A stretch of 64,000 bases of DNA from Nitrososphaerota archaeon (GTDB taxonomy: Archaea; Thermoproteota; Nitrososphaeria; Nitrososphaerales; Nitrosopumilaceae). Numbering within the stretch: position 1 is the stretch's first letter; every line of letters starts with the position of its first letter. The position numbers and the translations under genes were made by a program. The notes under the pieces were generated by a model. The model saw only the letters and a program-made list of their open reading frames with translations, had not been told where the DNA came from and did no database searches. Positions 1,692-20,892 of the stretch are shown here, piece after piece. Location: contig JAJPKL010000011.1 of NCBI GenBank assembly GCA_021323705.1, forward strand, positions 1 to 64,000. Reading direction: 5' to 3'.

Positions 1692-2006
1692 ATGGCAACA
1701 CCTATTCTAAAGAAAAAAGATAAACATATCGCTAAGAGTGCAACCTACAAGACTCATGCTCCTACTCTGAAGACAATTCAAATGGTGGAAAATGTCCTAA
1801 TGAAAGAAAAAGAGTTTAGCTCTAGAAACAAACTGTCAAGAGCCTTACCAAAGCAAGTCCAGCCAAAAACCATAAACGCAATTTTAGAGTATCTTGAGAG
1901 ATCAAACAAAGTAATGCGTCCAAAGGACGGCTCTATAATGTGGATATTTGCAGAAAATAATCCAAAACTAATGAAACTGCATAGAATGTCAACAGAACTA
2001 AAGTGA
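1692..2006 (+). CDS. Small winged-helix DNA-binding protein
   Basis: A 104-residue basic protein. Residues about 25-85 predict helix-helix-helix-wing: KTIQMVENVLMKEKEF, then a helix with SRNKLSRALP, a recognition-like helix with PKTINAILEYLERSNKV, then a short beta wing ending GSIMWIF. The Lys-rich N-terminus would aid DNA binding. Two spaced palindromes precede the start, so it probably represses itself. It ends one base before the end of the convergent RelE-like gene. It might act as an antitoxin for that gene, although true antitoxins usually lie in tandem. No precise family is recognised. Confidence 0.65.
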   Translation: MATPILKKKDKHIAKSATYKTHAPTLKTIQMVENVLMKEKEFSSRNKLSRALPKQVQPKTINAILEYLERSNKVMRPKDGSIMWIFAENNPKLMKLHRMSTELK

Positions 2007-2007
2007 T

Positions 2008-2325
2008 CTAGTAGCCAAACCGTTTTTCATATTCTTTATGATTTTGGAAATATTCCAAAATGTTGCAATATGTGATATCTGACACAGAATAAATGGTATA
2101 GATTAATCGCCTGCCGTCTCTTAATTCGAATCTGTAGAGATTTTGTATGTTAAAATTTTGAATGTAACATTTCGGCCATCTGTCTTTTGGAATTTTATTT
2201 CCATGTTCACAATCTTCTTTTAAAAGCGCCAAGGCACCGTCTATCTCTACATAAAGATCGCTTGTTTTTGGCACCGAACTGTAAAATTTCATGAATTTCA
2301 ATGATCCTCGAATCCTAATTTCCAT
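2008..2325 (-). CDS. RelE/ParE-like toxin-family protein
   Basis: Start chosen at the ATG at 2323-2325, giving 105 residues (MEIRIRGSLKF...). A longer frame runs upstream to 2415, but its hydrophobic N-terminal 30 residues do not resemble the family. The C-terminal part has the RelE/ParE pattern: FELRDGRRLIYTI strands and an ending HKEYEKRFGY, very like the HKEYD-x-FGY tail of archaeal RelE-like proteins. The family cleaves ribosome-bound mRNA or inhibits gyrase. No tandem antitoxin is seen, but the convergent winged-helix gene is one base away. Confidence 0.65.
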   Translation of the reverse strand: MEIRIRGSLKFMKFYSSVPKTSDLYVEIDGALALLKEDCEHGNKIPKDRWPKCYIQNFNIQNLYRFELRDGRRLIYTIYSVSDITYCNILEYFQNHKEYEKRFGY

Positions 2326-2447
2326 AGAATGAAAATTACGTAACTTGAGAGAAAAAGATCTGGTTATATTGTTATTTTGCAATATCTGTAATTGCAAAAA
2401 TACCGCAACAACCAAAATCTATAAACTTGTTTCTGTTTATCTCCTTG

Positions 2448-10179: not shown

Positions 10180-11610
10180 ATGAATCGAGTTTATTTCATG
10201 TCTGTGGCTGCAGTTCTATGCCTAACATTTGCAACGGCTCATGCATATGGTCAAGAACCTGATTGGAAGTATTTTATCAAGGTAGGCTCGTTCTGGTATT
10301 CCAACCCTCAGCAGCCCTCAGAACTCTTCAAAATTCCTTACAGGATTGAAAACGGAACCATTACGACCCTTGAAACTGACAACAAGGCTGACGTTTTTGT
10401 TCAAATCAAAAGCGACAAGGAAGGCAAGTTTGAGTTACAGATTCCAAAAAATTTTCCCTACACAAACTATGACTTTGATTCACGAAATACTCTATTTGAC
10501 ATTTCCATAAACGATACGCAGATGAACACGCCTGCATTTGAGACTCAAAACGACTGTTACTATGTCTTTTCTCTTCCTTTCAAGGGAGACTCGCAAATCA
10601 AGTTCAGCTTTAACGCAGACTATCAGTCAAGAAAACCATGGCATGGGGATAATGTTGACCAAAGATGCATCCCTGAAACCACTGTAAACGATGTAAATAA
10701 TGCACAAGACAGCTCTTATCTAATACCAATTAATTTCGCCTATCCAAAACTGGTTCAAGACTACTGGGCTGGAACCATCACCTTGCCAATAGAGCACGAC
10801 CAGTACACGAACTTTTCAACCAATTTCCGAACTACATACAAGGGTGACACACTCCCATACCAGCCATCAGGACAGACAAAAAAGCAGCTAATTGACGAAA
10901 ACTTTCAAGAATATCTCAAAAGAAATGGCGCCACAGTTCTGATTCAGGACAGAGTTTTTGAGCTCAACCGTACTGTATTTCACCTAGAACAAGAAAGGGA
11001 ACGTGCAAAATTATTACATGACGACAACAAAGTAAAGAATATGTCTGACACTATTGATGTGTTAGAACAGCAGGTATCCATATACCAGCAAGAATCCAAA
11101 AGACTATGGGACGAGCTAAATCTCATTCAAAAATACAATGTCGACCTCTACAAGATGGATCCTCAAAAAGCCAAAGAATATGCCGACGCCCAAACCGTTA
11201 TCACGCAAAAATATCTCAACGGAAACAGTATACATCCAAATTATATCACAACAGTATTTGTTGATTTTGTCAATGAGACCTTGGTAGTGGGCGTAAATAT
11301 ACCTGATAATTCAGTTGTTAAGAAAGAGTATGTTGCAAATCTATCAGATGGGATAAAAAAACTCGTAGGCGACAAGATCTCGTTTGAAATTCGGGATGTC
11401 AAGATTTGCATACCGGAAGACGCAAGCTGCATGGGGCCACCTCCAAAAACCCCCGTGCCATACCAGCAGTTCAAGCGAGGAATCGGGATTGATTCTGTGA
11501 AGTGTGACCCGCCATTTGAGCTGCACATCAAGGGACCAACAGAGCCGATATGCATCAAACCAGAGACATATGACAAGCTTGTATCGTGGGGATACTTTTT
11601 GTATCGATGA
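10180..11610 (+). CDS. Secreted protein with coiled coil and C-terminal two-Cys domain
   Basis: A 476-residue protein with a clear signal peptide (MNRVYFMSVAAVLCLTFATA, cleaved near AHA-YG). The first half predicts beta-sandwich folds with several N-glycosylation sequons. Residues about 255-325 form a coiled coil (FELNRTVFHLEQERERAKLL onward). The last 50 residues carry the domain shared with four neighbours: QFKRGIGIDSVKC, then PICIKP and a final SWGYF. Two Cys are conserved, probably as a disulfide. It lies 8 bases before the 11619 gene, so they form an operon. Function unknown. Confidence 0.75.
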   Translation: MNRVYFMSVAAVLCLTFATAHAYGQEPDWKYFIKVGSFWYSNPQQPSELFKIPYRIENGTITTLETDNKADVFVQIKSDKEGKFELQIPKNFPYTNYDFDSRNTLFDISINDTQMNTPAFETQNDCYYVFSLPFKGDSQIKFSFNADYQSRKPWHGDNVDQRCIPETTVNDVNNAQDSSYLIPINFAYPKLVQDYWAGTITLPIEHDQYTNFSTNFRTTYKGDTLPYQPSGQTKKQLIDENFQEYLKRNGATVLIQDRVFELNRTVFHLEQERERAKLLHDDNKVKNMSDTIDVLEQQVSIYQQESKRLWDELNLIQKYNVDLYKMDPQKAKEYADAQTVITQKYLNGNSIHPNYITTVFVDFVNETLVVGVNIPDNSVVKKEYVANLSDGIKKLVGDKISFEIRDVKICIPEDASCMGPPPKTPVPYQQFKRGIGIDSVKCDPPFELHIKGPTEPICIKPETYDKLVSWGYFLYR

Positions 11611-11618
11611 GGATCTAG

Positions 11619-12533
11619 ATGAGAATTCTATCTCGCGCAATAATTTTTATCAGTTTTATCGCCCTGACGGTGTTTCTTGGTGCTTACACATTATTTTCAC
11701 CCATCGATGCATATGCCAAATCAATCACGATTCGCACAGACAAACCATCCTATCATTGGGGATATAATATAACAATAACAGGTAAAGTGGATGGAACCGG
11801 CATGCTACATTTGAGAATACTCAACCCGTTTCAAAATCCTGTATCTTCCAAGTATTTCTTTCCAAGATGGGACGGAACATTTTCCCAAACCATATTGGCA
11901 AAAGGTCCTCTCTGGTCAGTAACTGGAAACTATACTGTAGAAGTCAGCGGAATTCCATCAAATACGCTTAGGACAACACTCTACTTTGATTCTAACCGTT
12001 CTAGCACATGGAAAAACATTACGAAACTGCAGGCCTTGCCACTTGACCAGCTCAGGTCTGGAGTCGCTGTAGAAAATATCCAGTGCAATGATGGATACAG
12101 CCTTGTAATCAGAGCCGAGGATGAATCCCCCGCATGTGTGACACCTCAGACAGCGCAGATCCTAGGAGCGCGTGGCTGGGCAATACAGGTTGGCACAGAT
12201 ATAGTACTTGAAAAGCCAAGCTCTTCTGCAAGGCCGTTTCCAATATGTAATTCCAATCCAGCAAAAGAGAAACGTGTCCGTGAAAAACAAGAGATTCTTC
12301 AAGAAGCGCTATCGCCTCCAGGAAAGCAGCATGGCAAATTTGGAAACATGACACAGAACTTGCCGTGGTCATTCATAGGCTATGACTGCCAAGATAACAC
12401 GCTTGAGGTTGGAATACTTCCCAAATACTTTACCGAAGACTTGATTCCAAAATACTTTGAGATTATTAGAAGCATAGTGGGATACTCTATCGACATTGCT
12501 CTCTCACCACAAGAATATGCACAACCACTTTGA
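11619..12533 (+). CDS. Secreted Ig-like protein with internal two-Cys domain
   Basis: A 304-residue protein. Signal/anchor at 5-33, then an Ig-like beta domain (34-123, TDKPSYHWGYNITITGKVDG) of the type common in archaeal surface proteins. Residues about 140-190 are the shared domain: PLDQLRSGVAVENIQC, ESPACVTPQTAQIL, ARGWA. Here it is followed by about 115 more residues with two further Cys and a WSFIGYDCQDN segment, similar in layout to the tail of the 14279/15220 gene. It is the second gene of the operon starting at 10180. Confidence 0.75.
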   Translation: MRILSRAIIFISFIALTVFLGAYTLFSPIDAYAKSITIRTDKPSYHWGYNITITGKVDGTGMLHLRILNPFQNPVSSKYFFPRWDGTFSQTILAKGPLWSVTGNYTVEVSGIPSNTLRTTLYFDSNRSSTWKNITKLQALPLDQLRSGVAVENIQCNDGYSLVIRAEDESPACVTPQTAQILGARGWAIQVGTDIVLEKPSSSARPFPICNSNPAKEKRVREKQEILQEALSPPGKQHGKFGNMTQNLPWSFIGYDCQDNTLEVGILPKYFTEDLIPKYFEIIRSIVGYSIDIALSPQEYAQPL

Positions 12534-12627
12534 TTCCGTAATTTATTCCAAATAAGGTTCAAGCCTTAAATCTCATCATCCAAGGAAAATATCGTGACAT
12601 CAAATAATGAAATAGTAATGAAAATTC

Positions 12628-13044
12628 ATGAACAATACCTATGAGACTAATGAACAGATTCTCCTACGACACAAAAAAAGAACTAATGAACAAGTATACA
12701 TCGGGGTAATTCAAAAAAATATGGATGAAGTGCTTCGCATGATAAATAATGTTGGAAATTCTGGAAATAAAGAACAAGATTTACTTGAAATAGCCGCTCA
12801 CATCCTAGGGGCAGTTACTTTGAAGCAACCATTCATGGATGGCAATAGGAGAACTGGTATTATTGCTACAGGTAAATTTCTACGTGATAACGGATATGAT
12901 TTAGATATTGATCCAGGAGAGGAGAATTCGGAATTAAGATCGTTGTTAAGAAAAATCAAGGACCAACTGTTAACTTTGAACCCGGAAGTCATGAAACAGA
13001 TGTCTTTTTATATCTCGCAAAGAATGAGAAAACATGAGCCCTGA
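12628..13044 (+). CDS. Fic/Doc-family protein with altered active-site motif
   Basis: A 138-residue protein. The Fic/Doc core is present, but the motif reads QPFMDGNRRTG (67-77) instead of HPF-x-DGN-K/G-R, so the catalytic His is Gln67. Fic/Doc enzymes transfer AMP or phosphate; without the His, activity is doubtful. A TATA-like CCTTAAATC at 12564-12572 points to a GTG at 12594, whose frame reads EIVMKIHEQYL and then stops at 12642. That helix looks like a Fic N-terminus, so the gene may be frameshifted near 12640. Confidence 0.65.
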   Translation: MNNTYETNEQILLRHKKRTNEQVYIGVIQKNMDEVLRMINNVGNSGNKEQDLLEIAAHILGAVTLKQPFMDGNRRTGIIATGKFLRDNGYDLDIDPGEENSELRSLLRKIKDQLLTLNPEVMKQMSFYISQRMRKHEP

Positions 13045-13117
13045 AGATAAGAAAATCAACGATGAACTTATTGAGAAATACTCTAAACTTTTAGATGATC
13101 TCGCTCATGACGACTAG
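13034..13117 (+). CDS. 27-residue downstream open frame
   Basis: The ATG overlaps the last codons of the Fic/Doc gene. It encodes an acidic, helical peptide MSPEDKKINDELIEKYSKLL followed by DDLAHDD. Translational coupling and helix-like composition suggest that it could be real, perhaps a small partner, but the length alone proves little. Confidence 0.3.
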   Translation: MSPEDKKINDELIEKYSKLLDDLAHDD

Positions 13118-13189
13118 TTTCTAACCTGTTTTGTTCTCTGGAATTAAATTCGAACAACTACTAACTGCAAAATTTTGATTCAATCCAAA

Positions 13190-13216
13190 TTTAATCGAGG
13201 AAAAACCTTGATTAAA
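13190..13216. repeat. 11-bp stem hairpin
   Basis: TTTAATCGAGG and CCTTGATTAAA pair (one G-T) around an AAAAA loop. It lies in the gap after the Fic/Doc gene and could be a terminator or operator. Confidence 0.4.
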
Positions 13217-13289
13217 AACATAACAAAGTTCTGGTACCAGTCCAGAGCCAACAAGTAATTGGATCGTCATCGAACTTAATATTCTAAGG

Positions 13290-13475
13290 ATGCGTAGGAA
13301 TTCGTTGGATATTTATTATTTTGATAAAGATGTGGTTGAGCAGCTAAGGCAGTCCCTTGACCTGCTTCCCGAAGAGGCGCCGTATTTGTACGAGGGAGGA
13401 GTCGACTTTCTGCTGGATAGTGTCACTCCACGACTTGATAGACGAGAACGGACTGAGGGATTGGATAAAGGATAA
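13290..13475 (+). CDS. Hypothetical acidic small protein
   Basis: A 61-residue frame (MRRNSLDIYYFDKDVVEQLR...). It has a helix with LRQSLDLLPEEAPYLYEGG and an ending rich in Arg, Asp and Glu. No known motif is found. The next small gene starts 29 bases later. The Leu/Glu periodicity is protein-like, but a promoter at leaderless distance is not clear. Confidence 0.35.
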   Translation: MRRNSLDIYYFDKDVVEQLRQSLDLLPEEAPYLYEGGVDFLLDSVTPRLDRRERTEGLDKG

Positions 13476-13504
13476 TATAGTTTACGAGACATAGAGATGT
13501 AGAG

Positions 13505-13687
13505 ATGGCATTTACCGTAAGACAGATAGACAAGGAAAGACTCGGAAAGGTGTCGAAGAAATCTATTGCTGAGATTAAAGAGGATCTAGAACTTCTCAGG
13601 GCTTATGATGAAAAAATTGCCAACGGCCCCATCTCGGACGGAAGAAAGTACGTAAAGCAGCTGATGAATGCAGGGCGCACAACCTAG
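13505..13687 (+). CDS. Hypothetical helical small protein
   Basis: A 60-residue, highly charged, helical protein (MAFTVRQIDKERLGKVSKKS, then IAEIKEDLELLRAYDEKI). It follows the 13290 frame closely and could be its partner. No domain is recognised. Confidence 0.4.
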   Translation: MAFTVRQIDKERLGKVSKKSIAEIKEDLELLRAYDEKIANGPISDGRKYVKQLMNAGRTT

Positions 13688-13754
13688 CAAGACAGAATTA
13701 GCCAACAAAGCATTTGATTATGTTAAAATCAAATTTAATATGGAACAAGGGTGT

Positions 13755-13770
13755 GCCACTTTTTTAAATC
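13755..13770 (+). promoter_or_regulatory. TATA box of the 13794 operon
   Basis: GCCACTTTTTTAAATC is centred about 29 bases before the ATG at 13794. Fourteen of its bases (GCCACTTTTTTAAA) recur unchanged before the 16847 gene. Confidence 0.65.
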
Positions 13771-13793
13771 ATTATGTCCAGTGCGTATTAAAA

Positions 13794-14282
13794 ATGAAAA
13801 TTTACAATCTTCCAATAATTGTGATATGCGTCTCTTCAATAGCTCTCGGTATCTTCCTTGTTGCCCAGTTTCATACGGATTATGTCAGTCCCATAGATAT
13901 GGCAAGAAGCGTGCTGGTTCAAGTGCAGGCCACATCTGATCCTCAAACAATACAGAACAAACTTGTAACCGTAGAAAGACTCTTGCCAGTTACCGGTAAT
14001 CCTGTATTGATATCACCTACCGAAGATACAGATTTTGGGCTGATGCAAAATGACTTGAAGTCTATGCTTGGGACTGTAAATCACATCACAAATGCCCCAT
14101 CGTGGAGCTCAAATTTTCACACTGGAATGCTGAACGTGCATGCACAGGCAGCTACCCTTGTCTTCAACCTACTTGACACTACGCCATACCTCTATGCCAG
14201 CCCGCCTTTTGTACTTGCAAATATCTTGTGGTTGCTTGGTGCGATTGGGCTTGTACAATATGCAAGTATCAAGAAAAAATGA
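13794..14282 (+). CDS. Membrane protein with N- and C-terminal transmembrane segments
   Basis: The start MKIYNLPIIVICVSSIALG at 13794 is chosen over an earlier in-frame ATG because the TATA box lies 29 bases before it and the N-terminus is then a signal or membrane segment. The protein has 162 residues. A second hydrophobic helix (FVLANILWLLGAIGLVQYA) lies at the C-terminus before Lys-Lys-Lys. The middle, outside part is soluble and has no known motif. Its stop overlaps the start of the next gene (ATGA). Confidence 0.7.
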   Translation: MKIYNLPIIVICVSSIALGIFLVAQFHTDYVSPIDMARSVLVQVQATSDPQTIQNKLVTVERLLPVTGNPVLISPTEDTDFGLMQNDLKSMLGTVNHITNAPSWSSNFHTGMLNVHAQAATLVFNLLDTTPYLYASPPFVLANILWLLGAIGLVQYASIKKK

Positions 14283-15205
14283 AAACTTTCTGTATAATTA
14301 CAATCATCGTTTCAGTGTTTTTCATATTATTCGTTTCAAGTCCAGCATATGCTCCATGTGCTATTGGTCCAAATGGGACTCAGACATGCGGTGGTCCGCC
14401 ACAAATCCACATGACCATAACACATGACAGTTTTGCATATGCTGAAAATGATACTGTCACAATTTTAGGCAAAGTTGACCAGTACATATTATCAAATTAT
14501 GGTAGACACCTATCAATCAAAATATACAATCCGCAGATGATGTTATACAGATCAGACCAGTTCCAGACATCCTCTGACGGCTCTTTTTCATATTCTTTCA
14601 AAATAAAAGGAAACCTTGCCCTCAGCGGCTATTACAATGTATATGTTAGCCCAGATGAAAAAATAATGTCGTATGGAACTGCATTTGAGTACCAGGCCAT
14701 TCCATACGATCTGATATTAGGTGACAAGCGTTATCCTGTTACGTATGTTGTAGATCCTGGGTCGTTGGATGAGATTGACGCAAGTCTGCAGGGAAAATCA
14801 ATTGTTTTGCATGTTGTAAACGCGACATCGCCTAGCGTCCTAAGAGTAGACCTTCCAAGGACTCTCATAGACTCTGCATCTGACACTTACGATTCTCCAT
14901 TCACTGTGTTGGTTGGCAATTCCCAAGAAACAAGATACATGAAACCTGCAAATTTCAATGAGACTCTGACTAATTCTGAAACAAGAAGGCTGGTAATTGA
15001 TCTTCCGTACAACCCTTACATGAATCCTGGCAAATGGTATGTGAAGATAATTGGAACAAGTATCGCATCAGGATATGAGAATACTGTCAATTCTCCACTC
15101 AAGCAATTCAGACTGGGAGTATCCTCTTATGACGTAATCTGCCAGAGCGGTCTGCAACTAATCATTAAAAAAGACGATTCCCTGCATGTGTCAGGCCCAG
15201 TATAG
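14279..15205 (+). CDS. Secreted Ig-like protein, 5' part of a frameshift-split gene
   Basis: The ATG at 14279 overlaps the previous stop. The signal peptide is MKTFCIITIIVSVFFILFVS, cleaved near SPAYA. An Ig-like domain (about 45-135) with TVTILGKVD and DGSFSYSFKIKG resembles the 11619 protein, followed by a second beta domain. Near the end the shared domain begins (SPLKQFRLGVSSYDVICQSG), but the frame reads on as DDSLHVSGPV and stops. Another frame continues with ACVRPSIAAKLWMLGW, so one base is missing around the CCC at 15180-15182. The rest is at 15220. Confidence 0.7.
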   Translation: MKTFCIITIIVSVFFILFVSSPAYAPCAIGPNGTQTCGGPPQIHMTITHDSFAYAENDTVTILGKVDQYILSNYGRHLSIKIYNPQMMLYRSDQFQTSSDGSFSYSFKIKGNLALSGYYNVYVSPDEKIMSYGTAFEYQAIPYDLILGDKRYPVTYVVDPGSLDEIDASLQGKSIVLHVVNATSPSVLRVDLPRTLIDSASDTYDSPFTVLVGNSQETRYMKPANFNETLTNSETRRLVIDLPYNPYMNPGKWYVKIIGTSIASGYENTVNSPLKQFRLGVSSYDVICQSGLQLIIKKDDSLHVSGPV

Positions 15206-15219
15206 CTGCCAAGCTGTGG

Positions 15220-15696
15220 ATGCTTGGATGGATAAACCAATCTCCAGAAATATACACAAGGTTTGGAGATTCCAAGATCCAGTCAAGATTTCAGTCGGAG
15301 ATTATCAGTAAAGAGAGAGCCTTGTCAATAGTCAATGATTTCATAAAACGTTACACCATGACATTGCATGTAGACAGAAACAATACCTCCTTTCACATCG
15401 AAACGTCGTTAGATTACATTAGCTTATCAAAGGATTACCAGAAACTTCTCGATGTTGACCCTGACACAGGTCTTCCAACCCAGATTATGCCACCTTGGTG
15501 GACAAATTACTATGAGAATCCTAGGTGGTGGACAGAGCTTGAAAAAGACTATCTTGGATTGCCAAGCAACAGGGTAGAAAACGGATATCTTGCATGGACC
15601 ATAAGATACAGAGACTGTTCTGAATGTATAGCCCAATATCCCATTTTTTCGGTCGACGCTATAAATGGTAAAGTCTTGACTGCAAATCCAGGGTAG
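15220..15696 (+). CDS. 3' part of the frameshift-split surface protein
   Basis: The first ATG in this frame gives 158 residues with no signal peptide. Upstream in the same frame, from about 15183, it reads ACVRPSIAAKLWMLGW, which completes the two-Cys domain begun in the 14279 frame. So this is very probably not a separate gene. The rest has KERALSIVNDFIKRY and a Trp-rich WWTNYYENPRWWTELEKDY, a PepSY-like layout, and ends with AINGKVLTANPG. It might be translated only if ribosomes shift frame or if the sequence has an error. Confidence 0.6.
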   Translation: MLGWINQSPEIYTRFGDSKIQSRFQSEIISKERALSIVNDFIKRYTMTLHVDRNNTSFHIETSLDYISLSKDYQKLLDVDPDTGLPTQIMPPWWTNYYENPRWWTELEKDYLGLPSNRVENGYLAWTIRYRDCSECIAQYPIFSVDAINGKVLTANPG

Positions 15697-15704
15697 AAAT
15701 CTAC

Positions 15705-15719
15705 GTCAATTTTTTAAAC
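15705..15719 (+). promoter_or_regulatory. TATA box of the 15742 gene
   Basis: GTCAATTTTTTAAACC is centred about 28 bases before the GTG at 15742, at the same distance as the related boxes. Confidence 0.6.
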
Positions 15720-15741
15720 CAATAAAATAAACTTCAAACTT

Positions 15742-16740
15742 GTGGAGAATTTACAAATTATTGCACTTGTAGCAATTGCAATATCTCTAGTCAGCATTGG
15801 GCTGGTGGTTGCCAACGTTTTAAATCTTCAAGGCACATTGATGAACCTTAATGCAAGCATAATTGAACAGTCACAGGGTACCAAATCTCTAAACCAGCAA
15901 GCAAATTCCACACAACAACTAATCAACGAACAGAAGAAGAATATCTCACAAATGGAATACGGCATAGGGAATCTAACAAACGAGATTAAATCATTGGAAG
16001 GGAGAGTTGCGTCACTTGAACATTCACGGCCGCATTGCTCTCCAGAGGGATGTCCTCCGCTCACCAACCAACCATCTTCTAGCACAAAATTTGTGCCAAT
16101 TGCATTAAGAGATGACAAGGGAAACCTGTGGACATCATGGTTCATCAAGGAGAGCCTTTACTATCCTACATTATACAGCACAAGCTGTGACGCTCCTTCC
16201 GTAGATTGTTACGTTAACTTTTCCAACATTTCTACTCCAAACGGCACCGGTATTGAGGCAGACACCATAGGAGCTACCGTATATGGCTACTGGTTTCTTG
16301 GATATTCCCAAGAATACGTGGTACCAGAAAATGGAACTGTAACCATCTCCGGAAATTTCTTAAAAAATGATACCTTTTCACAAGTTTATGGGCTTGTGCC
16401 GCCACATCCCAGTCAAAACACGTCTGAAGGTTATGGCGCAATGATGCCTGCACCCTCTATGCATCAAAACTTGACGCAGGTTCCGGAGGGAAGAAGCCAC
16501 ATCTTTGTATTCATATTGGATAGGGATCCGAACATAATACTTGCACAAAAGGAAGCCGTGTTATCATCGGATAATGTTACAACGTGGTATGATAGGTCAG
16601 TAACCTTCAATTTACATCCGGGACAAGTGTTCAGGGTTGGCATAGGGTCTGAGAATAACTGGGCAAATGACTATCATGTCTACGTTGCATGGAATGGAGT
16701 AACAATTCGTGCTGAACCGGCATGGAGTCCATTGCAGTGA
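15742..16740 (+). CDS. Membrane-anchored coiled-coil protein with beta-rich outer domain
   Basis: GTG start supported by the TATA box. It has 332 residues: a membrane anchor (about 5-28), a coiled coil with N-glycosylation sequons (about 30-95), a Cys/Pro-rich hinge (HCSPEGCPP) and a beta-rich domain to the end with many NxS/T sites. It stands alone between two operons of the surface cluster and lacks the two-Cys domain. Such a stalk-and-head layout suits a surface or sensor protein. The function is unknown. Confidence 0.65.
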   Translation: MENLQIIALVAIAISLVSIGLVVANVLNLQGTLMNLNASIIEQSQGTKSLNQQANSTQQLINEQKKNISQMEYGIGNLTNEIKSLEGRVASLEHSRPHCSPEGCPPLTNQPSSSTKFVPIALRDDKGNLWTSWFIKESLYYPTLYSTSCDAPSVDCYVNFSNISTPNGTGIEADTIGATVYGYWFLGYSQEYVVPENGTVTISGNFLKNDTFSQVYGLVPPHPSQNTSEGYGAMMPAPSMHQNLTQVPEGRSHIFVFILDRDPNIILAQKEAVLSSDNVTTWYDRSVTFNLHPGQVFRVGIGSENNWANDYHVYVAWNGVTIRAEPAWSPLQ

Positions 16741-16805
16741 AGAATCTGTTCATAGACAAAAACGTTGGTTGCAATTGAGTACCGAAGAAACCCGAAGAAT
16801 GCTGC

Positions 16806-16820
16806 GCCACTTTTTTAAAC
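16806..16820 (+). promoter_or_regulatory. TATA box of the 16847 operon
   Basis: GCCACTTTTTTAAACC is centred about 32 bases before the ATG at 16847. It shares GCCACTTTTTTAAA with the promoter at 13755. Confidence 0.6.
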
Positions 16821-16846
16821 CATTGATTGTACCGTCCATATGGTAT

Positions 16847-18382
16847 ATGAAGATCATTTCACGCTCAAATTTGTATAGAAAACACAATAGGTTTCTACCA
16901 CATTGCCAAAGTTCAAAAATATATTCATCACATTTGAAAACGAACGATTCTTGTTTTTTAGCACTTTCCATAATATCCATTTGTCTTTTGTCAGCAGTTC
17001 CGCTAATAATTCCAAATGTCAATGCAGCAACTCCACAGATTACATTTGGTTCGCTTGGTTCCGCGCCTGGCCAATTGGATCTCCCAAGGGGGATGGCAGT
17101 TGATAATGCCGGAAATGTCTATGTTGCAGACAACAGGAACCATAGGGTAGAGGAATTTGGACCCTCAGGAAAATATATTTCAGAATTTGACAAAGGCGGC
17201 ATTCCAGAAGGCATTGCAGTCGATGGCTCTGGCAATATTATTGTGGTAGACAGGGAAAACATGACTGTAAAAAAATTTAGTCCTCAAGGGGCATTGCTTT
17301 CATCCTTTGGTTCTGCAGGTTCAGAGCCTGGCCAGCTTGGAAACGCAGAAAGGGTTGCACTTGACAGGTCGGGCAACATCTACGTTACGGATGCTAACAC
17401 AGTGGAAAAATTCGACCCAAAGGGTTCTTTTATGTCGTATTTTTTTGCAAATGACACAAAAAACTGTTGCATGGACGCGATGGGAATTGCAACCGACAAT
17501 TCGAACAATATCTATGTTGCAGACATGTTCTATCACAGAATAATAAAGTTCAATTCTACAGGCTATATCCTGTCAGTGTTTAATGCAACTTTTTCCGTTC
17601 CAAGAATCAGCAGTACGCCGCAAGACGTTGCAGTCGATACTGCAGGCAACATGTACGTGGCAGACACATACAATGGAAGAATAGTTAAACTCGACCCGAC
17701 TGGGCGTCCATTGTCATCACTTGAGATATCTGGTGTGCCTGTAGGAATTGCAATCATGGGAGACAAAGTCTATGCCACAGATTTGGCAAATAATAGAGTT
17801 GAAGTATTCCAAACATCACAATTTGTGAACAACGGCACTGATATTGTTCAAAACAGTACGCAAAGAAAAGAGCCTCCCCTCAACCAAAACTCGACAGCGC
17901 TTGATGCCGCAATAAAACTTGCCACAAACTCCCCCCAGTTCCAGTCTCTGGTTGAGGGGTACAACTATTCATTTAGCAGTGATTTTGAAGAATCAGGCCC
18001 ACTGTCCAAGGGTGGTATAGGATTAACAGCACACGGATTTGCCTTTGAGATATACTCTGGTCCTGTAAAACCAGGCAAAGCAGTAAAAGTTGTAGAAGTA
18101 TTGGAAGACCCAACACTTAGCAAGATTCTAAACGTGACATCATATCCTGCAGTCTACATGGGGCCTGCAATGCCTCCCACTGCAAATGCCACTGAAAACC
18201 ATGGGCAAAGCAATACCATACCATCCCCATTGAAGCAGTTCAAGTCAGGAATCGCTGCCGCAGATGTAAAATGTCAATCAGGATTGTTGCTAGTCTTTAA
18301 AACAACGGATGGTACTCCTGCATGTGTGAAATCCAACACTGCCAATATTCTGGTAGAACGTGGTTGGGCAAGATCCTCTTAG
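16847..18382 (+). CDS. Secreted NHL-repeat beta-propeller with two-Cys domain
   Basis: The ATG at 16847 is preferred over an earlier in-frame start at 16709, which would overlap the previous gene and precede the TATA box. It has 511 residues: a membrane/signal segment (CFLALSIISICLLSAVPLII), then about six NHL repeats, for example LPRGMAVDNAGNVYVAD and PQDVAVDTAGNMYVADTYNG, forming a propeller. A further domain and the shared C-terminal domain follow: SPLKQFKSGIAAADVKC, TPACVKSNTANIL, ERGWARSS. NHL propellers usually bind proteins or sugars. It leads the 18387/20077 genes. Confidence 0.8.
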   Translation: MKIISRSNLYRKHNRFLPHCQSSKIYSSHLKTNDSCFLALSIISICLLSAVPLIIPNVNAATPQITFGSLGSAPGQLDLPRGMAVDNAGNVYVADNRNHRVEEFGPSGKYISEFDKGGIPEGIAVDGSGNIIVVDRENMTVKKFSPQGALLSSFGSAGSEPGQLGNAERVALDRSGNIYVTDANTVEKFDPKGSFMSYFFANDTKNCCMDAMGIATDNSNNIYVADMFYHRIIKFNSTGYILSVFNATFSVPRISSTPQDVAVDTAGNMYVADTYNGRIVKLDPTGRPLSSLEISGVPVGIAIMGDKVYATDLANNRVEVFQTSQFVNNGTDIVQNSTQRKEPPLNQNSTALDAAIKLATNSPQFQSLVEGYNYSFSSDFEESGPLSKGGIGLTAHGFAFEIYSGPVKPGKAVKVVEVLEDPTLSKILNVTSYPAVYMGPAMPPTANATENHGQSNTIPSPLKQFKSGIAAADVKCQSGLLLVFKTTDGTPACVKSNTANILVERGWARSS

Positions 18383-18386
18383 AGAA

Positions 18387-20072
18387 ATGAAAACTCTGGG
18401 CCTTTCCATTATTCTAGCAGTGGCATCTGTAACTATAATGATAACACAAAATGTTATGGCAATGCCATACCTGTCACCGCAAGATCTGTACCGGCAAAGC
18501 GATGTGGTGTTTTATGGCCAAGTCATATCAAAACAAGTCGGGCCTGGACCAGATTATGACTATTATCAAATCAAAGTTAAAACATATTTCAAAAATCCGC
18601 AGACATCTGACTCGATAACCGCCGCAGGGCACATGCCTTCCGGAGGACATGTCACATACACACAGTTTGAGGTGGGAGATAAGGCTCTTTTTTACATAAT
18701 AAAGGAACAAGGAATCAACATCATATCTCCATATTCTACAAAAGCTGGTGAAGGGTGTGATATACATGCATTTTTGGGACCGGCGCCTATAGCAGATGAG
18801 CCAATCATGAGGGGACAACAAAGTCCACTTGAGCAAATCACTGATGCGAACATGACAACGCGAGGCTCATTTGGGATAAACCAAACAGTCTTGGTATCAT
18901 ATCATGTATGGAACAATTTTCCACAATCAAAAAATTTCACTGTTGAACTATCTGCAACAAATCAGAATGATACAACTAATTCTTTCTATAAAAAACAAAA
19001 CATCCGAGTTGGCGCATGTGATACCAGCGACGTCAAATGGCTCTTTGTGCCAACAAAAGCAGGAAATTATATTGTCAATGCCACTGAAAATGGAAAATTC
19101 AGAGCAGGGACAAGTTTTGAAGTTGTAAATTCCAGTCAATATAAAATTGCAGAAAACACAAACCCAACATTTGAATTAAATGATGACGGTATAAAATCAT
19201 CAAACGAGACACAATTTCCGCTGAAGATAAACGGGACATTCACACAAAAGGAAGGCCCACTTGTATTCAAGATGACATTGCTCAATATTACTTCAGACTC
19301 GAGATGCCCTATTGGGGTAACATGCATCTGGCAAGGACAGGTCGCGATTTTGGTAAGAGCAACGCAAAATGGCCAAAGTCTTGGAAACTTTAGTCTCTCA
19401 AGTGAAAAAGGAAAGGATACTGTATCACTTGGCATACACACTTTACACCTAGTGCAGGTAAATCCATATCCCTCTGGTAAAAAAATATCGCCTTCAGATT
19501 ACACTGCCATATTTACAATTTCGCGTCAGGTTCTGTCTCCTCTAAAACAATTTGATCTAGGGATAATGCCAATTGAGGTAAAATGTGAAAAAGATCTTGT
19601 TCTAATAATAAAATCAAAGGAAGGCTTGCCTGCATGTGTGAAACCTGACACTGTGCAGATACTTGAACAACGAGGATGGGCGGAGATGAAATCAATTCAA
19701 GCAAATCACAACTCAAATGTTAAAACTAATCCATTTGGTGTAGCTGGGCTTGTGTTATACTACGGCGGCGGTCCGTGCGGAGTAGGTACTTGCCCTTTTA
19801 ACACATTCAATCTCAAAATAAACTCAAACTATACTGCATATTTACTTGGGTACAACATTTGTGACGGCAATTCGTGCACAAAGACAACTGATTTGAAAGT
19901 ATTGCTACCGCTCAACCAGTTCATAGGCCCATATTTTAAAACAATACCACTACCTGAGGGCTTGCCATGGAAACACAATGATACATTTAGTATTCAGGTT
20001 TTGGTGTCCCAAACCCCTGACAACAAAACAGCGATATGGACAGATCTTGGAAATTCTACAATAGTTCCTTGA
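18387..20072 (+). CDS. Secreted multidomain protein with NTR-like and two-Cys domains
   Basis: Start at 18387 (MKTLGLSIILAVASVTIMIT), four bases after the previous stop, gives a good signal peptide. It has 561 residues. The N-terminal part (SDVVFYGQVISKQ onward) resembles a TIMP/NTR-like OB fold. The middle has DSRCPIGVTCIWQGQVAIL, a Cys-containing motif also found in bacterial lipoproteins. The shared domain follows at about residues 388-438 (SPLKQFDLGIMPIEVKC, LPACVKPDTVQIL, QRGWAEM). A last domain of about 120 residues has four Cys. It is the second gene of its operon. Confidence 0.72.
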   Translation: MKTLGLSIILAVASVTIMITQNVMAMPYLSPQDLYRQSDVVFYGQVISKQVGPGPDYDYYQIKVKTYFKNPQTSDSITAAGHMPSGGHVTYTQFEVGDKALFYIIKEQGINIISPYSTKAGEGCDIHAFLGPAPIADEPIMRGQQSPLEQITDANMTTRGSFGINQTVLVSYHVWNNFPQSKNFTVELSATNQNDTTNSFYKKQNIRVGACDTSDVKWLFVPTKAGNYIVNATENGKFRAGTSFEVVNSSQYKIAENTNPTFELNDDGIKSSNETQFPLKINGTFTQKEGPLVFKMTLLNITSDSRCPIGVTCIWQGQVAILVRATQNGQSLGNFSLSSEKGKDTVSLGIHTLHLVQVNPYPSGKKISPSDYTAIFTISRQVLSPLKQFDLGIMPIEVKCEKDLVLIIKSKEGLPACVKPDTVQILEQRGWAEMKSIQANHNSNVKTNPFGVAGLVLYYGGGPCGVGTCPFNTFNLKINSNYTAYLLGYNICDGNSCTKTTDLKVLLPLNQFIGPYFKTIPLPEGLPWKHNDTFSIQVLVSQTPDNKTAIWTDLGNSTIVP

Positions 20073-20076
20073 ATAC

Positions 20077-20892
20077 ATGAAAACATTGCATCTCCTAGCA
20101 GTTGTTATCTCAGTAACGTTATTTGGTGCTCTTGGCATGTCAAGTGAACAAACTCTGATTCCTTCTTGGATTAAAAACACTGCCAAGTGGTGGTCTGAAG
20201 GGCAGGTAGATGATAGTGATTTTACAAAAGGTCTTGAGTACCTAATACAAAATAATATTGTAATAATACCGCCTACAAACTCAACTGCCATAAAGGAAAA
20301 CAAGATACCGCTTTGGGTTAAAAATAACGCTGGCTGGTGGGCAGATGGAAAAATCTCAGATGGCGAGTTTGTGAAAGGAATCCAGTATCTAATCGGAAAA
20401 GGTATCATAAACGTAAGCTCAAACCCAGTTGTAAATAATACAAGTCAGTGCGATAACATCTCAACCCCTGCAGAAAAGGAGACATGTCTTGAACAAGCAC
20501 AGCGTGATGCCAAGATCAAAAATGCGATTGCAAGCACCGTACCATATGGTATAGGTCCTGTCACTTTTTACTACGTTGGAAGCCAAGTCCAACCTGCTGA
20601 TGGCAACAAGTCAATTGTCACACTACACTTTATGGTACAAGACAATGGAAGCAACCAAGTTACAATGTCATGCCAGAATCAAAATTCCTGCAATTACGTA
20701 TTCAGTGATGGTACAAGGAACATCCAATTTGCCACAAACACGTTAGTTTATGGAAGCCTCACGCTTGTGCCAAAGGCGCCAACCTTTGTAGACTGGACAT
20801 ACTATGACACATTTGACACGCAAAGGAATTACACTTTTGATGTAAACGAGCAGTGGGGAACAGGTTCCATACCAATAAGGATCAATTGGTAG
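20077..20892 (+). CDS. Secreted protein with two W-W repeats and a beta domain
   Basis: A 271-residue protein starting four bases after the previous stop. Signal peptide MKTLHLLAVVISVTLFGALG. Two repeats follow (about 27-64 and 77-113) with the pattern IP-x-W-I/V-KN-x-A-x-WW-x2-G-x-I/V-x-D-x2-F-x-KG-x2-YLI-x3-I. They recur at 40599 and 52106. The C-terminal part (about 150-271) is a beta-sandwich, perhaps DUF4352-like, with two Cys in MSCQNQNSCNYVFS. It is the third gene of its operon. Confidence 0.75.
   Translation: MKTLHLLAVVISVTLFGALGMSSEQTLIPSWIKNTAKWWSEGQVDDSDFTKGLEYLIQNNIVIIPPTNSTAIKENKIPLWVKNNAGWWADGKISDGEFVKGIQYLIGKGIINVSSNPVVNNTSQCDNISTPAEKETCLEQAQRDAKIKNAIASTVPYGIGPVTFYYVGSQVQPADGNKSIVTLHFMVQDNGSNQVTMSCQNQNSCNYVFSDGTRNIQFATNTLVYGSLTLVPKAPTFVDWTYYDTFDTQRNYTFDVNEQWGTGSIPIRINW

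What the first reader, a model, noticed from the sequence alone, without database searches (positions are those of the whole stretch)
10180..20072. A shared two-cysteine C-terminal domain in five neighbouring exported proteins
Proteins at 10180, 11619, 14279/15220, 16847 and 18387 all carry one segment of about 45 residues: P-x2-Q-F/L-x2-G-I/V, then V/I-x-C, a short strand, P-x-C-V/I and L-x3-GW. Two Cys and a Trp (aromatic position) are kept while the rest of each protein (coiled coil, Ig-like, NHL propeller, NTR-like) differs. It is seen directly. It looks like a reused module, possibly for surface attachment, sorting or mutual binding. In two proteins it is internal, so it is not only a C-terminal sorting tag.
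Basis: partly seen in the sequence, partly recalled or inferred. Interest (0 to 1): 0.75.

Follow-up and report, generated by a model that had tools for sequence, protein, structure and literature searches.

The report
Portable docking-type module, archaeal surface proteins
Five neighbouring exported proteins of an ammonia-oxidising archaeon (Nitrosotalea) share one small disulfide-type domain that was catalogued in 2026 (NCBIfam WING-49) without a function; across many genomes it occurs exactly once per exported protein, is shuffled between unrelated partners and was never found together with a C-terminal membrane anchor, which suggests that it holds proteins at the cell surface.

Summary
Window proteins at 10180, 11619, 14279/15220, 16847 and 18387 each carry one copy of a ~50-residue module; the third copy is split by a 1-bp frameshift. 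It is not an undescribed domain: all five pass the cut-off of NCBIfam NF058652 "WING-49". That entry gives no function, and no Pfam family, solved structure or paper was found. The genome has 11-12 copies; most Nitrosopumilaceae have 1-40+, with few outside that family. AlphaFold2 gives a confident helix/beta-hairpin/helix fold (pLDDT 97), the same fold for the most divergent window copy.

New here: 190 of 190 open frames hold exactly one module, at any position, in almost only signal-bearing proteins with unrelated partners. None of 125 has a C-terminal transmembrane segment, against 47 of 223 other exported neighbours; homologous ectodomains carry either WING-49 or a PEFG-CTERM anchor. The module is basic while its partners are acidic. 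Module heads and tails recombine freely.

Best explanation (about 0.45): a single-copy docking or retention module that holds unanchored exported proteins at the acidic S-layer/envelope, replacing a membrane anchor. The receptor is unknown and nothing was tested at the bench.

The parts
11458..11595 (+). WING-49 module, copy 1, C-terminal in the 476-aa protein 10180-11610 (most divergent copy; final W replaced)
   Evidence: E 0.008 with one query; 43.4 bits vs cut-off 22; AF2: same H-E-E-H fold, pLDDT 87.7
12039..12182 (+). WING-49 module, copy 2, internal in the 304-aa protein 11619-12533
   Evidence: (69.4 bits)
15092..15231 (+). WING-49 module, copy 3, internal; interrupted by a 1-bp frameshift (first half in the frame of 14279-15205, second half 15181-15231 in the frame that continues into ORF 15220-15696)
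   Evidence: continuous orthologues L140, L141
18224..18370 (+). WING-49 module, copy 4, C-terminal in the NHL beta-propeller protein 16847-18382
   Evidence: (77.7 bits; AF2 pLDDT 97.2)
19536..19682 (+). WING-49 module, copy 5, internal in the 18387-20072 protein
   Evidence: (71.3 bits)
10180..11610 (+). host protein 1: signal-bearing; its residues 41-169 are homologous to a protein that ends in PEFG-CTERM
   Evidence: match to L069:1452-2039, 33% over 132 aa
11619..12533 (+). host protein 2: Ig-like head, module, short alpha/beta tail
14279..15696 (+). host protein 3 (frameshifted): MG2-like head, module, PepSY-like tail
   Evidence: (MG2 E 2e-4; PepSY E 5.6e-4, both below Pfam cut-off)
16847..18382 (+). 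host protein 4: NHL repeats (Pfam NHL E 8e-34) plus C-terminal module
18387..20072 (+). host protein 5: two-part head, module, ~130-aa tail that recurs in other WING-49 and non-WING-49 proteins

Best explanation
WING-49 is a portable, autonomously folding docking module of about 50 residues that keeps exported, otherwise unanchored proteins at the cell envelope of Nitrosopumilaceae and relatives. Each protein carries one copy, at any point of the chain, so the module works as an addressed plug and not as a structural repeat. Two invariant cysteines probably form a disulfide that locks the helix/beta-hairpin/helix fold outside the cell. Its basic surface (in proteins that are otherwise acidic) is proposed to bind an acidic partner of the envelope, most simply the acidic S-layer lattice or its acidic glycans. 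It would thus be a non-covalent alternative to the PEFG-CTERM membrane anchor, and surface proteins exchange one for the other by domain shuffling. SHOWN: homology, single copy, position independence, export signals, absence of a C-terminal TM, anchor swaps, charge, shuffling. INFERRED: disulfide, retention, identity of the partner.
For: One module per protein in 190/190 open frames. Position free: 33 C-terminal, 23 N-terminal, 88 internal of 144. 125/132 module genes begin with a hydrophobic N-terminal segment vs 275/586 of other genes in the loci. C-terminal TM anchor: 0/125 module proteins vs 47/223 other exported proteins; still 0/99 vs 47/223 (Fisher 7e-9) when only modules with a tail of more than 40 aa are counted. 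Swaps: the same ectodomain with WING-49 in one protein and a PEFG-type anchor in another, e.g. L084:7065 vs L076:6094 (44% over 257 aa), L125:7911 vs L071:4495 (55% over 181 aa), L093:4083 vs L070:11343 (38% over 183 aa), window 10180 vs L069:1452. Module more basic than the rest of its own protein in 134/142 (+3.0 vs -4.1 charges per 100 aa; p 4e-23); sequons are at chance in modules (34 vs 37 expected) but 1.8-fold enriched in the rest (1216 vs 672), i.e. the module is not selected for glycosylation. AOA S-layer proteins are acidic, pI 3.4-4.9 (PMC6790972). Partners are unrelated: dienelactone hydrolase, beta-propellers, Kazal, cupredoxin, metallo-beta-lactamase-like, Hint, MG2.
Against: No receptor was identified, and no localisation data exist. 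Many exported homologues have neither WING-49 nor a C-terminal TM, so proteins of these families can do without either. TM calls are hydropathy-based, and only about a fifth of the comparison proteins are anchored. Homologues of the dienelactone hydrolase in genomes of another family are mixed: some have an uncleaved-looking N-terminal hydrophobic anchor, others a plain signal peptide. The S-layer is present far beyond the range of WING-49 (own knowledge), so the S-layer as receptor does not explain the restricted distribution. The basic charge alone does not prove binding.
Confidence: 0.45

Rival explanations
1. WING-49 is an outward-facing ligand-binding module (like a carbohydrate-binding module): it brings diverse secreted enzymes to a shared substrate, e.g. 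acidic polysaccharide, humic matter or a mineral, not to the own cell surface.
For: Partners include enzymes and binding folds; basic module; copy number is highest in some larger genomes of the window's own genus and zero in several small 0.8-1.2 Mb genomes.
Against: Binding modules of this kind often occur in tandem, but none of 190 frames has two. Does not predict the absence of C-terminal anchors or the swaps with PEFG-CTERM.
Confidence: 0.2
2. WING-49 mediates protein-protein assembly among the module proteins themselves or to a dedicated scaffold (dockerin-like), building an extracellular complex from the clustered genes.
For: One copy per protein and unrelated partners, as for dockerins; genes cluster: 5 of 12 in 8.1 kb here, 7 of 16 in 48 kb in G111 (P 5e-5).
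Against: No protein with repeated receptor-like domains recurs beside the modules; recurrent neighbours by strict clustering are BNR-type proteins with C-terminal anchors and housekeeping genes. Clustering also follows from local duplication and shuffling.
Confidence: 0.17
3. The module has no specific partner: it is a stable folded spacer that persists because it is a recombination hub. Homologous module DNA in neighbouring genes lets heads and tails be exchanged, which diversifies surface proteins.
For: Among 96 proteins with head and tail, 173 pairs share only the head, 193 only the tail and 25 both; two modules of one genome are 85% identical in DNA with unrelated flanks; ten module pairs of 78% or more identity have unrelated remainders; orthologues L140/L141 keep module and tail but differ in the head.
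Against: Conserved polar residues Q7, K28, R48 and a kept basic charge suggest a selected surface; a pure spacer would not need to be single or to exclude membrane anchors. Most module pairs are well below 78% identical in protein, which makes homologous exchange between them unlikely (inference).
Confidence: 0.13
4. The module marks proteins for a dedicated secretion, maturation or quality-control step in the pseudo-periplasm (for example oxidative folding) and is not retained by binding.
For: Found almost only in signal-bearing proteins; invariant Cys pair.
Against: Such signals usually sit at a chain end; here the position is free. Many exported homologues lack the module.
Confidence: 0.05

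Closest known systems
NCBIfam NF058652 WING-49 domain
   Same: Same domain: all five window copies and 120/120 scanned relatives match it.
   Different: No difference in the domain itself; the entry gives only a name and no function. No paper in the library mentions it.
PEFG-CTERM (TIGR04296), the thaumarchaeal C-terminal sorting/anchoring signal
   Same: Occurs in the same genomes, same gene clusters and on homologous ectodomains.
   Different: PEFG-CTERM is a C-terminal motif plus TM helix plus basic tail; WING-49 is a soluble folded domain at any position, and the two were not found in one protein.
Dockerin modules of cellulosomes
   Same: Small, usually one per protein, fused to unrelated catalytic and binding partners (own knowledge).
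   Different: No calcium-loop repeats; two-Cys helix/hairpin/helix fold; no cohesin-like scaffold seen near the genes. Analogy of use only.
S-layer homology (SLH) and other cell-wall-binding modules
   Same: Non-covalent retention of exported proteins at the envelope (proposed).
   Different: SLH usually comes in threes at a chain end (own knowledge); WING-49 is single and position-free; archaea here have no peptidoglycan.
Small phage hairpin-helix proteins (e.g. head-to-tail connector A0A345L0J1)
   Same: Foldseek aligns the hairpin-helix half: 33 columns, rmsd 1.1 A, TM 0.60.
   Different: E-value 0.5, not significant; probably a generic small fold.

Membership tests
NCBIfam NF058652 WING-49 | profile score above 22 bits | tested here: met
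   43.4, 69.4, 33.2 (half module), 77.7, 71.3 bits
NCBIfam NF058652 WING-49 | full-length match to the 49 positions | tested here: met
   1-47 to 1-49 of 49 in four copies; the frameshifted copy matches 1-29, its second half lies in the next frame
PEFG-CTERM / archaeosortase substrate | C-terminal P-E-F-G-like motif followed by TM helix and basic end | tested here: not met
   0/125 module proteins have a C-terminal TM
Dockerin | paired ~22-residue calcium-binding F-hand repeats | tested here: not met
   no dockerin among the Pfam families listed for 120 proteins (first 25 of 58 shown); the module is a helix/hairpin/helix with two Cys
Dockerin-like use | a repeated receptor (cohesin-like) on a scaffold | tested here: inconclusive
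   no recurrent candidate next to the genes; genome-wide search for a receptor not done
Disulfide-stabilised extracellular domain | invariant Cys pair in exported proteins | tested here: met
Disulfide-stabilised extracellular domain | Cys S-S distance in the model, or mass-spectrometric proof | not testable with these tools
   model coordinates are not returned

The most novel reading that the evidence does not exclude
Ammonia-oxidising archaea have a second, non-covalent surface-retention system beside PEFG-CTERM: a single-copy, position-independent, disulfide-locked basic plug (WING-49) that docks dozens of unrelated exported proteins per genome on the S-layer or another envelope receptor, and whose conserved DNA also serves as the junction at which surface proteins recombine.
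Probability: 0.3. Interest if true: 0.75.

Novelty: new member of a known kind. Interest (0 to 1): 0.5.

Why it matters
Ammonia-oxidising archaea are among the most abundant organisms in soil and ocean, yet how they hold enzymes and binding proteins in the space under or on the S-layer is hardly known. WING-49 labels 1 to more than 40 exported proteins per genome, many of them without a known family. If it is a docking module, one tag would identify a large part of their surface proteome, and a pull-down with one 50-residue peptide could reveal the receptor.

Tried and rejected
New uncatalogued domain: rejected, NCBIfam WING-49 matches all five. Pfam domain: none for the module. Solved structure by sequence: no hit up to E 1. 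Fold relatives: none significant in PDB (best E 2.5) or viral models (best E 0.27). Virus, phage or plasmid origin: no relatives in viral contigs, phages or plasmids. C-terminal sorting tag of the CTERM kind: rejected, position free and no TM. Lipid anchoring through a lipobox: lipobox-like motifs are equally rare in module proteins (3/125) and others (7/223). Recurrent neighbour as receptor: first loose clusters (22 and 19 loci) fell apart under a stricter length criterion. WING-49 and PEFG-CTERM as lineage-exclusive systems: rejected, they coexist in most genomes, PEFG reaching further. Two attempts with the full alignment A1 to scan collections failed because no stretch was conserved enough.
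Full report
CHECK OF THE OBSERVATION. The five proteins were translated. NCBIfam release 20.0 recognises all five as NF058652 "WING-49" over its cut-off; Pfam has no model of it. The third copy lies in one gene split by a one-base frameshift in the module: the upstream frame reads ...LIIKKDDS and the continuation PACVRP...GW lies in the next frame and runs into ORF 15220. Orthologues in two other Nitrosotalea genomes carry module and PepSY-like tail in one frame, so the window copy is broken or misassembled. [quoted passage not shown]

THE ORGANISM AND THE RANGE. The own genome has 11 copies with one query and 12 with the profile. Two other families of the order have a few copies. Over the phylum nothing but one marginal hit (E 0.009) lies outside, and 14 control genomes are empty. 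Several genera with 0.8-1.2 Mb genomes have none. Viral contigs, phages and plasmids have none.

SEQUENCE AND FOLD. In 61 aligned copies P4, Q7, G11, C19, P34 and C36 are invariant, and L5, L25, K28, A35, V37, L45, R48, G49 and W50 are kept in 90% or more. In 184 copies both Cys are kept in 183, and 183 of 184 modules have exactly two Cys. AlphaFold2 with this alignment gives mean pLDDT 97.2: helix 4-9, strand 24-28, strand 34-37, helix 39-47. The divergent 10180 copy gives the same order of elements at pLDDT 87.7. No significant fold relative was found.

ARCHITECTURE. From the fetched loci 184 distinct module proteins were gathered. Every one of 190 open frames has exactly one module. Of 144 complete proteins, 33 have it within 20 residues of the C-terminus, 23 within 70 residues of the start and 88 elsewhere. 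125 of 132 module genes start with a hydrophobic segment, against 275 of 586 others; the few exceptions include misplaced starts and truncated genes. Partners are unrelated: dienelactone hydrolase, WD40/PQQ/NHL propellers, Kazal, cupredoxin, MG2, Hint, DUF4377, metallo-beta-lactamase-like.

NO SECOND ANCHOR. By hydropathy, none of 125 module proteins has a C-terminal TM segment, while 47 of 223 other exported proteins from the same loci do, 21 of them with a PEF-type motif. The result holds when only modules with more than 40 residues behind them are counted (0/99 vs 47/223, Fisher 7e-9), so it does not simply follow from the module occupying the C-terminus. Homologous ectodomains are found with WING-49 in one protein and a PEFG-type anchor in another, including the first window protein. 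Many homologues have neither, and dienelactone-hydrolase homologues in another family are mixed, so the case is good but not closed.

CHARGE AND GLYCOSYLATION. The module carries on average +1.6 charges (+3.0 per 100 residues) in proteins whose remainder is at -4.1 per 100; it is more basic than the rest in 134 of 142 (p 4e-23), at the 87th percentile of 50-residue windows of the same protein. N-glycosylation sequons are 1.8 times over expectation in the remainder and at expectation in the module. AOA S-layer proteins are acidic (pI 3.4-4.9; PMC6790972), and Ca. N. [quoted passage not shown] An acidic envelope partner is therefore the simplest proposal; it is inference.

SHUFFLING AND CLUSTERING. 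Heads and tails recombine around the module: in 96 proteins with both, 173 pairs share only the head, 193 only the tail and 25 both (the script failed in its last, unneeded step). Two modules of one genome are 85% identical in DNA with unrelated flanks. Genes cluster (5 of 12 in 8.1 kb here; 7 of 16 in 48 kb in G111, P 5e-5).

CONCLUSION. The evidence favours a single-copy docking/retention module used in place of a membrane anchor (0.45), over a ligand-binding module (0.2), an assembly module (0.17), a recombination spacer (0.13) or a maturation signal (0.05). Identity of the partner is open.

LIMITS. Loci are unevenly sampled and related to each other, so the p-values overstate independence; TM and signal calls are simple hydropathy; gene starts were chosen mechanically; the literature library lacks most subscription journals.

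Noticed in passing
window 14279-15696: One gene split by a 1-bp frameshift within the module; continuous orthologues in G012 and G003, the latter with a different head domain.
   Followed up: yes
window 12628-13044: Fic/Doc-family protein (Pfam Fic E 2.7e-7) whose active-site motif reads KQPFMDGNRRTG, with Gln where the catalytic His is expected; lies between the module genes.
   Followed up: partly
window 1692-2003 (+) and 2011-2415 (-): Convergent pair of small proteins (one weakly winged-helix-like, the other RelE-like by eye) that recurs beside WING-49 genes in five other loci; possible toxin-antitoxin pair.
   Followed up: partly
window 20077-20892: Exported protein with two tandem copies of a different motif, IPxWIKNxAxWWxxGxISDxxFxxGIxYLI; no Pfam or NCBIfam match. 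A similar motif occurs in L079.
   Followed up: partly
L006, L031 and other members of A3: Five WING-49 proteins match the Pfam Hint_2 domain, C-terminal in the two read; whether autoprocessing takes place is unknown.
   Followed up: no
L120: WING-49 gene in a contig labelled Alphaproteobacteria (OFTM68); its head matches Nitrosopumilus proteins, so the contig is probably misbinned.
   Followed up: partly
L068, L069, L097, L099, L101, L111, L112: BNR-type (sialidase-like) exported proteins with C-terminal anchors recur inside WING-49 gene clusters.
   Followed up: no
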